A stretch of DNA of 64,000 bases from Sphingomonas echinoides ATCC 14820. Lineage in GTDB: Bacteria > Pseudomonadota > Alphaproteobacteria > Sphingomonadales > Sphingomonadaceae. Location: NCBI RefSeq assembly GCF_000241465.1, contig NZ_JH584235.1, positions 1,185,486-1,249,485 of the forward strand, read 5' to 3'. Both the position numbers and the translations under genes were made by a program. The notes below the pieces were generated by a model. The model made no database searches. It was not told the DNA's origin and saw nothing but the letters and a program-made list of their open reading frames with translations. This document shows, piece by piece, positions 4,048 to 42,410 of this stretch; positions within the stretch are counted from its first letter, which is position 1; each line of letters starts with the position of its first letter.

Positions 4048-4275
4048 TTGGCCGCGCGTTAGCGACAAATGACGCCCGCGTCATCTCCCCCCTCTTGAAA
4101 GCCCGCACGACGATCCATATTGTTGGGGTGCGGACCGGGCCCCTCTGGCGAGGGCTGAATAAGCCCTCGTGATGTCGGACCGCATCGAGCTCGCTCGGTG
4201 CAGGACGGCCCATGACACCGTCCCCCGCCCCGAAACAGCCCGATCGATTTCACCATCGACGAAGAGGCTGCTGCC

Positions 4276-38215: not shown

Positions 38216-38860
38216 TCAGCCGCGATCGCGGCTGAGTTCGTCCACTTCCCCCATGATGGTATCCAGCGCGGTCATGCCCGGCTCGTTGGTATGCGTGCGA
38301 CGCGACGCCAGCGTATTGTCGCTCATCACCGCCTCCAATGCGACGCGCCCGCGTGCGACACGGCTCTTGATCGTACCGACGGCAACACCGCAAATCTCTG
38401 CGGCCTCCTCATAAGCAAAGCCGCCGGCACCCACCAAGATCAGCGCTTCGCGCTGTGGCTGCGGCAAATGCAGCAAGGCACGCTGCATATCGCCCAGTTC
38501 GACGTGCTTATCCTGGCTGGCTGGCGCGGCAAGGATACGATCCGCCACCAGATCGTCCCACTCGCCTTTGAAACGCGCGCGACGCATCTGGCTGAGATAG
38601 AGGTTGCGCAGGATGATGAAGGTCCATGCCCGCATGTTGGTCCCGGCCTGGAAGCGCAACCGCGCCGCCCACGCCTTCATTAGCGTTTCCTGCACGAGAT
38701 CGTCGGCAAGGTCGCGATTTCCCGAAAGCGAGCGCCCAAAGGCGCGCAAATGCGGAATGACCTGGGCCAATTGCGTCTTGAACTCGGCGTCGGAAAGCGA
38801 AACGTGCTCGACGACCTCGGGCACGGTTTCGTCTTCGTCCTGGTCGATCGCGTCGGTCAT
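38216..38860 (-). CDS. ecfG: ECF sigma factor EcfG of the general stress response
   Basis: A 214-residue ECF15-type sigma factor. Region 2 includes DLADDLVQETLMKAWAARLR and region 4 ends in AEICGVAVGTIKSRVARGR. Family knowledge: EcfG is held by NepR and released by phosphorylated PhyR, and reads GGAAC-N16/17-GTT promoters. Such a motif lies at 39122-39147 upstream of its probable cotranscribed neighbour. ATG 38860 gives the conserved length. Confidence 0.9.
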   Translation of the reverse strand: MTDAIDQDEDETVPEVVEHVSLSDAEFKTQLAQVIPHLRAFGRSLSGNRDLADDLVQETLMKAWAARLRFQAGTNMRAWTFIILRNLYLSQMRRARFKGEWDDLVADRILAAPASQDKHVELGDMQRALLHLPQPQREALILVGAGGFAYEEAAEICGVAVGTIKSRVARGRVALEAVMSDNTLASRRTHTNEPGMTALDTIMGEVDELSRDRG

Positions 38861-38938
38861 GAAATATAGTCTCGCGTAGCGGAACACAGATGGGCCCGAC
38901 AGACAGCGAAGTCCATCACGCCAGCGGCATCGAAAAAT

Positions 38939-39148: not shown

Positions 39149-39955
39149 TTAAGCGGCGGGAACCGTCGCCTGGTCGAAGAACAAAGCCTGCGCGATCGCC
39201 GCTTTCACGGTCGAGCGCTGGAACGGCTTGGTAATCAAGAAGGTCGGCTCAGGGCGTTCGCCCGTCAACAACCGCTCGGGAAAAGCAGTGATGAAAATAA
39301 CCGGCACTTCAAACTCGGCAAGGATATCCTTGACCGCGTCGATTCCCGAGCTGTCGTCAGCCAATTGAATATCGGCGAGCACCAGGCCGGGGCGATCCTC
39401 CATCGCCAGCGCGACCGCTTCGTCGCGCGTGACGGCAACACCAGTCACTTCATGGCCAAGGTCACGAACGATCGTCTCGATATCCATCGCGATGATCGGC
39501 TCGTCCTCAATGATCAGCACGCGAGCACGCGTCTGCTTTTCGATTTCGCTCAGCGCTTCGGCGACCAGTGCCTCAACTTCGCTGGTGTCGACATCGATCA
39601 GATAAGCGGCGTCTTCGGGGGTGAACCCTTCCATCGCGGTGAGCAACAAAGCCTGGCGCGACAACGGCGTCATCCGCGCGAGGCGTGCACGAGCGATCGC
39701 TTCCTGGCTGTCACCGTCACCCGCGCTCATATTTTCCGGGCTCTCATCGTAATTGGTCGAGTTCCAGATGGCGTGGAACATCCGATAGAGGCCCAGGCGT
39801 GGATCGACCTCGCGCGGGAATTCCTCGGGTGCGGCGACGATCGCTTCCAGCGTGGCGCGCACATAACGATCGCCATGCGATTGGCTGCCCGTCAGGGCGC
39901 GCGCATAGCGGCGCAGGAACGGAAGATGGGGGGCAAGTTGCTGTCCTAGCGACAT
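39149..39955 (-). CDS. phyR: General stress response regulator PhyR
   Basis: A 268-residue anti-anti-sigma regulator. Residues 1-125 form the EcfG-like output domain (LAPHLPFLRRYARALTGSQ, GFTPEDAAYLIDVDTSE). Residues about 135-258 form the receiver with the phospho-acceptor in LADIQLADDSSGIDAV and the PVIFITAFPERLL segment. When phosphorylated it binds NepR and frees EcfG. ATG 39955 is taken. No EcfG motif was seen upstream on its strand. Confidence 0.93.
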   Translation of the reverse strand: MSLGQQLAPHLPFLRRYARALTGSQSHGDRYVRATLEAIVAAPEEFPREVDPRLGLYRMFHAIWNSTNYDESPENMSAGDGDSQEAIARARLARMTPLSRQALLLTAMEGFTPEDAAYLIDVDTSEVEALVAEALSEIEKQTRARVLIIEDEPIIAMDIETIVRDLGHEVTGVAVTRDEAVALAMEDRPGLVLADIQLADDSSGIDAVKDILAEFEVPVIFITAFPERLLTGERPEPTFLITKPFQRSTVKAAIAQALFFDQATVPAA

Positions 39956-40067
39956 GACTGTCGGAGTCTCCCTGAGATAATCTCGAAGGGCCTTGTGGAA
40001 GCGGCCCCCCGCATATGCAACGCGTTTTGTTGCTCCGACGGCATCGGAGTTAATTCGCATTGGGCAT

Positions 40068-40125
40068 GGAACCATCGACGCGCAATTTGGTTTCATGCTG
40101 GAACTCGGACCGATGCAATCTGTTT
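40068..40125 (+). promoter_or_regulatory. Tandem EcfG-type promoters before nepR
   Basis: Two copies of GGAAC-N17-GTTT on the plus strand: GGAAC 40068-40072 with GTTT 40090-40093, and GGAAC 40100-40104 with GTTT 40122-40125. They are 32 nt apart and lie upstream of nepR. Both match the general stress response consensus. Confidence 0.75.
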
Positions 40126-40217: not shown

Positions 40218-40394
40218 TTGCGTTCGGGCGACGAATCTTCAAAAAAGCCGGGTGCGGCACGCGCGGCCGATTCTGGCGCGAAGGTTCAAAGCAAGGACCG
40301 CGACATGGGCGCGGCTTTGCGCACCGTATATCAACGCACGGTGGAGGAAGCGATTCCGCCGGAGATGTTGGACCTTCTCGGAAAATTGGACTGA
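40218..40394 (+). CDS. nepR: Anti-sigma factor NepR
   Basis: A 58-residue protein. The C-terminal DMGAALRTVYQRTVEEAIP followed by PEMLDLLGKLD is the NepR core that sandwiches EcfG and PhyR. The start is taken as TTG 40218, with AGGGGGA 5 nt upstream; the longer ATG-started frame from 39993 would include the tandem promoters and is rejected. It ends 7 nt before the PhyP-like kinase. Confidence 0.88.
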   Translation: MRSGDESSKKPGAARAADSGAKVQSKDRDMGAALRTVYQRTVEEAIPPEMLDLLGKLD

Positions 40395-40401
40395 TTTACA
40401 G

Positions 40402-41988
40402 ATGACGGATATCGCCGGGGATACCGCCCCTGCGCGTCCGGGAGGCGGTCTGGTCGATCGCATCCCGACGGGTGCGAAAATTTTCCTGATTCTCAGTGCC
40501 GCGCTACTGCCGCTCGCGATCATCGCCTTCTTTGCGACGTTGCGCACCGCCGAACTGGCCGACGAAGCGACACAGGCCCAACTCCGCGTCACCACCACCG
40601 AAAGCGCCCGCAAGCTCGCGATCGAGCTGGTCGGCGACATGACGGCGCTGCGCGTGTCGCTGAACGCGCTTGAGGCAGACCCCGGCGATGCGCCGAGTTG
40701 CGCCCGCGCGCAGGGCGTGTTCGCGCCGCAAATCGCCGCTGGCACGCGTTTCATGATCATGGATGCGCGCGGTCATGTTATTTGCGGCGAGCAACTGCCG
40801 GTGGTGCCTTGGTCTGCGCCAACCCGTCCCGACAAGACGGTTGTGGCCCGGGTCTATCCAGGGCGCGGGCTGACCCTCGCTACTACCAGCGCCTCCGGGC
40901 GAACGCGCGCCGCCGCCTTTTTTCCGGTCGACGTTCTGGCCGCCACCGCCGCGCCGAGCGGCTATGCCATGCCCTATGAAGCGCGGCTGGTGCTGGGCGA
41001 CGACGCGCTGGTCTTGTCCGACCTGCCGCCGCAAGCCCCGCTGGAACGGCGCGCAGGCTTGAGCATGCCAGTCGGGCTTGGGGAGATCGCGCTGACCACG
41101 CGTATGCGCAGCGCGCCGATCACCTCGCCTGTTCTGGTGTCGCTGATCCTGCCGATCATCATGTGGGCGGCGGCGGCGGGCATTGGGTGGTTTGTGGTGG
41201 ATCGCCTGCTGATCCGCGCCTTGCGGCAATTGCGGTCGCGCGTCGCCAATTTCGTGCCCGGCGAAGAAATCGATCCCGGCGCAATGCATGCGCTTCCTGC
41301 GCAGGAAATCCGCGAATTGGGAGAGACCTTCCGCGCGATCAGCCGAACCGTCGCCGAGCATGAAGCCGGGCTGGCCGAGGGCCTGGTCCGCCAGACGAAG
41401 CTCACGCGCGAAGTCCATCACCGCGTCAAAAACAATCTTCAGGTCATTTCCAGCCTGATCAATTTCCACGCCCGCGCCGCGCGGAGCGCAGAGGCAACGC
41501 AAGCCTATGCCTCGATCCAGCGGCGCGTGGATGCGCTCGCCGTCGTCCACCGCAACCATTTTGCCGAACTCGAGGAAAATCGCGGGCTGTCGCTCCGCTC
41601 GGTTATCGGCGAACTGGCCTCCAACCTCCGCGCCACCGCGCCGGACGATTCCCCGATCGGCGTTACGCTCGATATCGCGCCCTATCTGGCCAATCAGGAT
41701 GTCGCGATTGCGATCGCGTTCCTGCTGACCGAGATCGTCGAATTGGCGATGACCGTCAGCCCGACGGCGCAAGTGCGGATCTCGATCAGTGCCGGCCCCA
41801 CCGAGGATCGCGCCATATTGAGAGTCAATTCGCCCGCTCTGGTCGATGATGACACCATGCGGGCGCTGGTGGCCGAACGCTATGGTCGAGTGATCGAAGG
41901 GCTGGCGCGGCAATTGCGGTCGAAGCTGCACTACGATCCGCTGGTCGGCGCTTATGAGATCGCGGTTGCGGTGACCGGGCGCGATTGA
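40402..41988 (+). CDS. phyP: HisKA_2/HWE-type sensor kinase-like protein, PhyP-like
   Basis: A 528-residue membrane protein in an operon with nepR. It has two membrane segments (about 19-42 and 235-260) around an extracytoplasmic domain, a HAMP-like helix, and a HisKA_2 dimerisation domain with HHRVKNNLQVISSL (H339/H340). The ATPase domain looks degenerate: LLTEIVELAM replaces the N-box pattern ELVTNAL, and no DNGxG or GLG loop is seen. Sphingomonas PhyP, at a similar locus, acts as a PhyR phosphatase, so the call rests on context and domain state. Confidence 0.8.
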   Translation: MTDIAGDTAPARPGGGLVDRIPTGAKIFLILSAALLPLAIIAFFATLRTAELADEATQAQLRVTTTESARKLAIELVGDMTALRVSLNALEADPGDAPSCARAQGVFAPQIAAGTRFMIMDARGHVICGEQLPVVPWSAPTRPDKTVVARVYPGRGLTLATTSASGRTRAAAFFPVDVLAATAAPSGYAMPYEARLVLGDDALVLSDLPPQAPLERRAGLSMPVGLGEIALTTRMRSAPITSPVLVSLILPIIMWAAAAGIGWFVVDRLLIRALRQLRSRVANFVPGEEIDPGAMHALPAQEIRELGETFRAISRTVAEHEAGLAEGLVRQTKLTREVHHRVKNNLQVISSLINFHARAARSAEATQAYASIQRRVDALAVVHRNHFAELEENRGLSLRSVIGELASNLRATAPDDSPIGVTLDIAPYLANQDVAIAIAFLLTEIVELAMTVSPTAQVRISISAGPTEDRAILRVNSPALVDDDTMRALVAERYGRVIEGLARQLRSKLHYDPLVGAYEIAVAVTGRD

Positions 41989-42028
41989 CCTTCGCGCCAT
42001 AAAAAAAACGCGCGCCTGGATTTTTTTC

Positions 42029-42054
42029 GGAACCGAAGCGCGAGACGCCCGTTT
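42029..42054 (+). promoter_or_regulatory. EcfG-type promoter for a small RNA
   Basis: GGAAC 42029-42033, 17-nt spacer, GTTT 42051-42054. It has an A8 and a T7 tract just upstream (42001-42027). The predicted start is near 42060 at the foot of a hairpin. Confidence 0.75.
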
Positions 42055-42059
42055 TTAGG

Positions 42060-42165
42060 TTCGGATAGTGATTTTATGCCCCCCCGCTCTCGCTATCCAA
42101 GACACGGGCCTGGCCGCGCTTCCTTCCCCCCCCCCCGGTAGCGCGTCCAGGCCCTAGCTTTTTTA
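42060..42165 (+). ncRNA. Candidate EcfG-dependent C-rich small RNA (GsrN-like)
   Basis: About 105 nt between an EcfG-type promoter and a T-tract, with no coding frame. Hairpin 1 pairs 42063-42070 with 42091-42098 around a 20-nt loop containing a C7 run (42079-42085). Hairpin 2 pairs 42106-42120 with 42140-42154 (14 of 15) around a 19-nt loop containing C11 (42126-42136) and is followed by T6 (42159-42164), an intrinsic terminator. Caulobacter GsrN is a sigma-T-dependent sRNA that uses a C-rich loop to bind mRNA leaders; promoter, layout and location next to nepR-phyP match that description. Sequence homology is not claimed. Confidence 0.68.
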
Positions 42166-42275
42166 TCGCTTGCTCCTGACCGCACGGCTTAGCGCGACCG
42201 TGTGGAACCAAGCGTAGCCCCAAACATTGGGAGCGAGGCATCCGGGCTACCCCGGACAGTCTTCAGGAGAGTATC

Positions 42276-42410
42276 ATGCGCAAGATCACCACGATCGCTA
42301 TCGCCGCCACTGCGTTGCTGCTTGGCGCGTGCAACACTGTCGAAGGTGTTGGCAAAGATGTGAAATCGGCAGGCGACACCGTCGCCAAAACGGCTGACAG
42401 CGCCAAATAA
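42276..42410 (+). CDS. Entericidin A/B family lipoprotein
   Basis: A 44-residue lipoprotein with signal MRKITTIAIAATALLLGA and lipobox LLGAC, then a short hydrophilic tail with repeated K/D/A residues. Size and tail fit the EcnA/EcnB family, small envelope lipoproteins often induced by stress. AGGAG lies 7 nt before ATG. It follows the small-RNA terminator in the general stress response region; an imperfect EcfG-like site (GGAAC 42214-42218) is not convincing. Confidence 0.85.
   Translation: MRKITTIAIAATALLLGACNTVEGVGKDVKSAGDTVAKTADSAK

What the first reader, a model, noticed from the sequence alone, without database searches (positions are those of the whole stretch)
42029..42165. EcfG-dependent C-rich hairpin RNA downstream of nepR-phyP, a candidate GsrN-type sRNA
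GGAAC-N17-GTTT at 42029-42054 is followed at the expected start by a hairpin with a C7-containing loop, then an intrinsic terminator hairpin whose 19-nt loop contains C11 and whose tail is T6. There is no reading frame. Seen: promoter, both stems, T-tract, C runs. Known: Caulobacter GsrN is a sigma-T-controlled sRNA that uses a C-rich loop on target leaders such as katG. Inference: this is a functional analogue or orthologue. The long C tract may also slip, giving length variation.
Basis: partly seen in the sequence, partly recalled or inferred. Interest (0 to 1): 0.85.

Follow-up and report, generated by a model that had tools for sequence, protein, structure and literature searches.

The report
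Sphingomonad stress RNA with C-rich loops
Next to the general stress-response genes of a Sphingomonas bacterium lies a conserved stretch of DNA that is predicted to be switched on by the stress sigma factor EcfG and to make a roughly 105-letter regulatory RNA whose two C-rich loops would likely grip G-rich messenger RNAs, as the known Caulobacter RNA GsrN does.

Summary
GGAAC-N17-GTT (42029-42053) is followed by two hairpins with C7 and C11 in their loops, then T6. The element recurs in 59 of 60 same-genus genomes. A covariance model finds it in further genera: 102 of 296 order genomes at E<=0.01, the weakest partly noise. In 34 divergent members 22 of 23 pairs show compensatory changes, and 97.5% of cells pair against 81.6% shuffled. 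The promoter motif, outside the model, precedes 32 of 33 model-found copies, against 20 of 3299 random 60-mers. This is a real, structure-constrained, predicted EcfG-driven RNA family without an Rfam match. It would work most like GsrN and, like R. etli ReC64, lies downstream of the stress-response kinase gene. Orthology to GsrN is undecided: no GsrN sequence could be fetched. The katG target is not supported (0 of 25 start regions with G5). New: two C-rich loops, C tracts of varying length (6-8 and 6-14 in 87 members), and linkage to an entericidin-like gene whose attenuated leader it may be in two genera. Transcription and targets are untested.

The parts
42007..42026 (+). A/T-rich stretch just upstream of the -35 element (UP-element-like; that name is recalled)
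   Evidence: the 20 nt at -22 to -3 of GGAAC are 61.6% A+T in 96 unique members, against 35.9% for their loci
42029..42053 (+). predicted EcfG promoter, GGAAC-N16-CGTT
   Evidence: a GGAAC/T-N14-18-GTT motif upstream of 32 of 33 model-found copies
42058..42167 (+). predicted small RNA (start near 42059-42063 inferred from promoter spacing; end inferred from the T-tract)
   Evidence: fold z -5.3; one clear copy in its genome
42063..42098 (+). hairpin 1, with an exposed C7 (42079-42085) in a nearly invariant loop
   Evidence: 8 of 9 pairs with two-sided changes across 34 members; C run unpaired with mean probability 0.88 over 42 sequences
42106..42154 (+). hairpin 2 (intrinsic-terminator stem) with C11 (42126-42136) in its loop
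   Evidence: 14 of 14 pairs with two-sided changes; C run unpaired with mean probability 0.99
42159..42164 (+). T6 tail of the predicted terminator
   Evidence: T-tract quality varies among 34 members
38216..38887 (-). ecfG sigma factor
   Evidence: Pfam Sigma70_r4_2 and Sigma70_r2; EcfG assignment from locus context
39149..40096 (-). phyR (open frame; the likely start is the internal ATG used)
   Evidence: Pfam PhyR_sigma2, PhyR_sigma-like, Response_reg
40218..40394 (+). nepR (start uncertain)
   Evidence: Pfam NepR 26.1 bits, cut-off 25.7
40402..41988 (+). phyP/phyT-like histidine kinase
   Evidence: Pfam HisKA_2 and HWE_HK
42204..42228 (+). second EcfG-like motif, GGAAC-N16-CATT, before the lipoprotein gene
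   Evidence: read; a similar, loosely defined motif precedes 68 of 82 downstream lipoprotein genes in relatives
42276..42410 (+). entericidin-like lipoprotein gene
   Evidence: Pfam Entericidin 29.2 bits, cut-off 23.3; a small lipoprotein frame lies downstream in 82 of 99 unique members (three doubtful frames dropped)

Best explanation
This is a conserved intergenic element of the window's bacterial family, predicted to be transcribed by EcfG RNA polymerase into a roughly 105-nt small RNA that would likely act in trans by pairing its two exposed C-rich loops with G-rich stretches of messenger RNAs during stress. Shown: the promoter sequence, the two hairpins, their covariation, the C tracts unpaired in the folding model, their conservation, and the position beside the stress-response genes (or, elsewhere, only beside the entericidin and tat genes). 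Inferred: release from NepR under stress frees EcfG, which starts transcription about 7-10 nt past GTT; hairpin 2 ends the transcript; the loops act as seeds, as the C-rich loop of GsrN does on katG in Caulobacter. Unknown: the targets and whether they are activated or repressed.
For: A promoter motif at 32 of 33 model-found copies against 20 of 3299 random 60-mers; leaving out five copies already seen earlier (L094, L098, L103, L104 and the window's own L114) it is 27 of 28. Compensatory changes in 22 of 23 pairs, 0 of 500 shuffles as high, and paired cells fall from 97.5% to at most 45.8% when the strands are slid. 26 G-U against 3 A-C cells place the RNA on the + strand. C tracts unpaired in folding, loop 1 nearly invariant. 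Conserved in 59 of 60 same-genus genomes. Precedents: GsrN, sigma-T-controlled and acting through a C-rich loop (PMC5869019, passages and sections 7, 11, 17, 29 read); R. etli ReC64, EcfG1-dependent, downstream of the kinase gene tcrY at the phyR locus, start mapped by 5' RACE (PMC3892343, passages).
Against: No transcript data; two sphingomonad EcfG papers mention no such RNA under the terms I searched (S. melonis PMC6599016, S. granuli PMC7083833). No target found: 0 of 25 katG start regions with G5; the G5-G6 site in the phyR leader is at the same place in only 7 of 43 loci; 51 gene starts of the window pair with loop 1 no better than random DNA (means -16.81 and -16.83 kcal/mol). T-tracts are poor in many members. 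Only 29 of 79 genera in the order sample have a hit at E<=0.01, some of them noise. Model R1 was built from motif-bearing sequences, though the motif is not in the model.
Confidence: 0.72

Rival explanations
1. The element is mainly a cis-acting, attenuated 5' leader of the entericidin-like gene: hairpin 2 would stop most transcripts and read-through would make the lipoprotein.
For: A small lipoprotein frame lies downstream on the same strand in 82 of 99 unique members. In seven loci of two genera (L126, L127, L128, L131; L133, L205, L220) its start is 24-33 nt past hairpin 2 with no promoter motif between. The entericidin/tatC linkage is wider than the linkage to ecfG/phyR: in 20 fetched regions (19 from other genera, 1 Sphingomonas contig end; some cut short by contig ends) tatC is near in 18, entericidin in 16, ecfG/phyR in 7.
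Against: In 68 of 82 members the gene has its own EcfG-like motif (loose pattern, chance rate not measured). The window, which that script missed, has one too (42204-42228). A leader does not need a nearly invariant C-rich loop in hairpin 1. Both may hold in different lineages.
Confidence: 0.15
2. It is a true orthologue of GsrN: one ancestral EcfG-dependent C-loop RNA inherited by Caulobacterales, Rhizobiales and Sphingomonadales.
For: Same predicted promoter class, length (about 100 nt), 5' C-rich loop and stress-gene neighbourhood. The GsrN loop inferred as the complement of its printed, predicted target sites (AAGUCGGGGGGCG, GUCGGGGGGCGUC) shares GCCCCCC(C)G with loop 1 here. ReC64 lies downstream of the kinase gene too.
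Against: With model R2, 14 of 337 class genomes hit at E<=0.1; beyond the own genus the best are G455 (9.3e-6) and G619 (7.1e-5), both without GGAAC in the upstream stretch shown, and three same-family genomes had no hit. The inferred GsrN core behind an EcfG motif: 5 of 337 genomes, none convincing. The eLife authors saw no gsrN-like gene in Erythrobacter litoralis. katG is not a shared target as far as tested.
Confidence: 0.25
3. It encodes a small protein starting at ATG 42076.
For: ATG or TTG precedes the C run in 47 and 36 of 87 unique members.
Against: C-run lengths vary by single bases and shift the frame; frame lengths among members shown range from 9 to 84 aa; other members have ACG, TCG or TAG there. 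Base-pair covariation explains the conservation.
Confidence: 0.03
4. It is only the transcription terminator of phyP, with chance C-rich loops.
For: Other terminator-like hairpins with C-rich loops and no EcfG motif occur in this order (e.g. L209, L213, L214).
Against: It has its own promoter motif in 32 of 33 copies and a conserved hairpin 1, and it persists beside entericidin and tatC in loci with no phyP match in the fetched stretch.
Confidence: 0.05

Closest known systems
GsrN (Caulobacter crescentus, ccna_R0081; PMC5869019, passages and sections 7, 11, 17 and 29 read)
   Same: EcfG-class promoter, about 100 nt, exposed C-rich 5' loop; homologues in relatives typically near ecfG/nepR/phyR (C. 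crescentus itself is an exception)
   Different: Here the terminator loop is C-rich as well; C tracts vary in length; no G-tract in the katG start regions scored; an entericidin gene is linked; homology to GsrN not shown
ReC64 (Rhizobium etli; PMC3892343, passages read)
RepG (Helicobacter pylori; PMC8295292, start of abstract in a search listing only)
   Same: An RNA that targets a homopolymeric G stretch in an mRNA leader
   Different: Unrelated organism; there the variable tract is the G-repeat in the mRNA, here the C tract of the RNA itself varies between species

Membership tests
GsrN | EcfG (sigma-T)-type promoter | tested here: met
   Sequence only: GGAAC-N16-CGTT in the window; a motif at 32 of 33 model-found copies. 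Dependence on EcfG untested.
GsrN | Exposed cytosine-rich 5' loop | tested here: met
   C6-8 in loop 1 of 87 unique members; a few divergent members left out of that tally have shorter runs (e.g. C4 in L125 and L133); unpaired probability 0.88 over 42 sequences
GsrN | Proximity to the GSR locus (positional criterion used outside Caulobacteraceae in PMC5869019) | tested here: met
   Within 320 nt after the kinase match in 36 of 60 named loci, further downstream in one (L089), not in the 23 Sphingobium or Sphingobium-like loci. In 20 further regions ecfG/phyR lie within the fetched stretch in only 7.
GsrN | Sequence or structure homology to Caulobacteraceae gsrN | tested here: inconclusive
   No GsrN sequence obtained; no convincing hit outside the window's family in 337 class genomes whose names are hidden
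[quoted passage not shown]
   0 of 25 katG start regions (-120 to +30, starts guessed) with G5 or longer; 5 of 30 loci not scorable. One locus, L225, has a G5 at -143; mRNA 5' ends further upstream were not covered.
GsrN | Cleavage into a stable 51-54 nt 5' isoform; stabilisation of the full-length form by Hfq | not testable with these tools
   Needs Northern blots or RNA-seq
Rfam families (release 15) | Match at gathering score | tested here: not met
   No match at this locus nor in seven loci with divergent members; only sub-threshold hits

The most novel reading that the evidence does not exclude
An undescribed, family-wide stress RNA with two separate C-tract loops, one of them in its own terminator, whose tract lengths slip between species and so retune pairing with G-tract messages, and which in some lineages is at the same time the attenuated leader of a stress lipoprotein gene.
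Probability: 0.35. Interest if true: 0.8.

Novelty: new variant of a known kind. Interest (0 to 1): 0.6.

Why it matters
GsrN gave the alphaproteobacterial general stress response a post-transcriptional arm; the 2018 survey of its relatives covered Caulobacteraceae and Rhizobiales and saw no gsrN-like gene in Erythrobacter litoralis, its outgroup. A conserved, covarying, predicted EcfG-driven RNA in sphingomonads would extend that arm to a third order and supply an alignment and a model for testing whether these RNAs share descent. The varying C tracts would make evolutionary tuning of RNA-RNA pairing testable by swapping species variants.

Tried and rejected
katG as target: 33 of 41 genomes had a hit, 30 loci were fetched, 25 could be scored, 0 had a G5 run at -120 to +30 (one search took wrong frames in several loci and was redone; one search shows one G5 at -143 in L225). 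phyR leader as conserved target: a G5-G6 site at the same place in 7 of 43 loci; 8 more have a G5 run elsewhere in the 160 nt. The window's own catalase-like gene (named by eye): no G5 run in the 100 nt before its likely start. Pairing screen of 51 gene starts in the window: no excess over random DNA. A GsrN copy: an EcfG motif followed by GCCCCCC matched 56 of 337 class genomes, with reversed-pattern control matches in a comparable number by eye, not counted; the inferred GsrN core matched 5 of 337. Seven 18-19.5-kb stretches around nepR in five other-family genomes: no C5 run behind the stricter motif, no R2 match at E<=1; a looser motif listed 14 stretches with C4, one of them with C5 (L182), none resembling this RNA by eye. 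Zymomonas Zms RNAs as expression evidence: ten coordinate pairs read, none could be tied to this place, and I could not name the AT-rich genomes G257 and G296. Weak model hits: of the 20 regions (19 order hits with E from 1.2e-10 to 5.1e-3, and class hit G455), 5 have the motif and entericidin or tat neighbours, 15 lack the motif; L134 was likewise dropped. The second own-genome pattern hit (L257) reads as coding by eye and was dropped.

Rows dropped before counts: one search tallied 87 unique of 123 loci (28 missed by its regular expression, the window and several divergent members with shorter C runs among them; the rest duplicates). One search located 110 of 123 (the window among the 13 missed), 99 unique, 85 with a downstream small frame; I dropped three (L016, L093, L096) as not lipoproteins, hence 82. 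Alignment A1 took 42 of 66 extracted sequences after thinning. The tallies printed include noise loci; the tallies cited here are.

Full report
What is there. The sequence shows GGAAC-N17-GTT at 42029-42053, equally GGAAC-N16-CGTT, then stem 1 (42063-42071 with 42090-42098) around a loop with C7, stem 2 (42106-42113 with 42147-42154, continued by an inner stem) around a loop with C11, then T6 at 42159-42164. Folding gives -44.8 kcal/mol, z -5.3, 0 of 200 shuffles as good. The promoter motif occurs twice in the window against 0.34 expected; the other copy is inside an open frame that reads as coding. The locus holds ecfG, phyR, nepR and an HWE/HisKA_2 kinase on one side, an entericidin-like lipoprotein gene and tatC on the other. 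The closest named locus by the kinase is from Sphingomonas sp. Ant H11, 98% identical in its best segment; records of the window's own genome may be left out of that list.

It is conserved as an RNA. A DNA search finds it in 59 of 60 same-genus genomes (E at most 2.3e-4; G007, 84% complete, has none) and convincingly in none of the 39 genomes of other families in that sample (best E 0.0048). Of 60 named loci found by the kinase, 36 carry the element behind the promoter motif within 320 nt of the kinase match, one further downstream (L089), and the 23 Sphingobium or Sphingobium-like loci do not. Model R1 from 42 sequences reached other genera of the same family. Thirty-four divergent members aligned to the model give 22 of 23 pairs with changes on both sides, 97.5% of cells paired against a shuffled mean of 81.6%, 0 of 500 shuffles as high on any of the five measures, and at most 45.8% when the partner strand is slid. 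That alignment was fitted to the model, which leans towards the structure; RNAalifold on the unfitted MAFFT alignment of the 42 gave the same two helices, with 14 of 23 pairs compensated in at least one sequence. Of cells departing from Watson-Crick pairs, 26 are G-U, 3 A-C and 16 other, which places the RNA on the + strand.

It is tied to an EcfG promoter. The models start near the inferred transcription start and contain no promoter, yet 32 of 33 model-found copies carry GGAAC/T-N14-18-GTT just upstream, against 20 of 3299 random 60-mers from fetched loci; without five copies already seen earlier it is 27 of 28. R1 was built from motif-bearing sequences, so this test speaks for the new hits only. 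In 20 regions fetched around further hits the motif is present in 17. Spacing before GTT is 17 nt in 80 and 18 nt in 7 of 87 unique members. The 20 nt upstream are 61.6% A+T where the loci average 35.9% (96 unique members).

Extent. Model R2 gives 102 of 296 order genomes and 29 of 79 genera at E<=0.01. Of 19 of those hits inspected with E from 1.2e-10 to 5.1e-3, 5 have both the motif and entericidin or tat neighbours and 14 lack the motif, so the true count is lower than 102. In 337 genomes across the class 14 hit at E<=0.1; only the two of the own genus are clear. The best outsiders, G455 (9.3e-6) and G619 (7.1e-5), show C-rich hairpins but no GGAAC upstream, and three same-family genomes have no hit. 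Genome names are hidden, so I cannot say which orders were sampled.

C tracts. In 87 unique members loop 1 has C6 in 9, C7 in 75 and C8 in 3; loop 2 has 6 to 14; some divergent members outside that tally have shorter first runs. Four closely related loci (L056-L059) have C7, C7, C8 and C6 in loop 1. In folding models both tracts are unpaired (means 0.88 and 0.99 over 42 sequences). The single-base length changes shift any reading frame, and frames starting before the C run differ in length and start codon among members.

Neighbour. A small lipoprotein frame follows on the same strand in 82 of 99 unique members, in 68 of them behind a further GGAAC/T...(A/G)TT motif (a loose pattern whose chance rate I did not measure). 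In seven loci of two genera it starts 24-33 nt past hairpin 2 with no such motif. In the 20 regions tatC is near in 18, entericidin in 16, ecfG/phyR in 7, some regions being cut short by contig ends. So outside Sphingomonas the element is more widely linked to entericidin than to the stress regulators, and in some lineages it may be an attenuated leader.

How it would work. Stress would free EcfG from NepR; EcfG would transcribe the RNA; the C-rich loops would pair with G-tracts in mRNAs. For GsrN this is experimental: compensatory mutations showed that its C-rich loop pairs with the first 7 nt of katG mRNA and raises KatG (PMC5869019, section read). ReC64 of R. etli shows an EcfG-driven RNA downstream of the kinase gene, with a mapped start (PMC3892343, passages). 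For the sphingomonad RNA the pairing step is inference. Tests for targets were negative or local: katG 0 of 25, phyR 7 of 43, 51 window gene starts no better than random DNA.

Membership and novelty. Promoter type, C-rich 5' loop and position agree with GsrN; katG pairing does not, as far as tested; homology is undecided. There is no Rfam match. In the literature held, a search for GsrN found 64 papers, 30 listed; the eLife paper is the one listed that studies this RNA, two other listed papers on Caulobacter hold the word twice each, and 'sphingomon' does not occur in the eLife main text. Searches on EcfG, Sphingomonas and small RNA terms (lists capped in the last three, seen as titles and starts of abstracts) showed no report of this RNA in sphingomonads, and term searches in two sphingomonad EcfG papers found none. 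Many subscription papers are not held. I therefore call it a new variant of a known kind: a GsrN-like stress RNA with two C-rich loops.

Noticed in passing
window 4127-4187 (+): terC RNA (RF03067), 65.3 bits, the only Rfam match at gathering score in the window.
   Followed up: no
L126, L127, L128, L131, L133, L205, L220: The entericidin-like gene starts 24-33 nt past the RNA's terminator with no promoter motif between, so the RNA may be its leader there.
   Followed up: partly
L223:6660-6761 (G455, another family of the class): Two hairpins with C-rich loops resembling this RNA (R2 E 9.3e-6) but no GGAAC motif just upstream and no match to the eight window proteins tried in 13 kb.
   Followed up: partly
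L134, L209, L216, L221: Terminator-like hairpins with C-rich loops shortly after what reads, by eye, as a gene ending in LDLVGKI or LDLVGKL; possibly a separate recurring 3' element.
   Followed up: no
window 40005-40010 (-), and L032-L036, L064: A G5-G6 site at the same place in the phyR leader of these close relatives, complementary to loop 1; a local candidate target.
   Followed up: partly
G162:C2:266131-266211, G194:C1:175417-175504, G230:C2:69402-69484, G247:C1:752083-752201, G340:C1:940673-940786: Second, weak model matches in genomes that also have a strong one.
   Followed up: no
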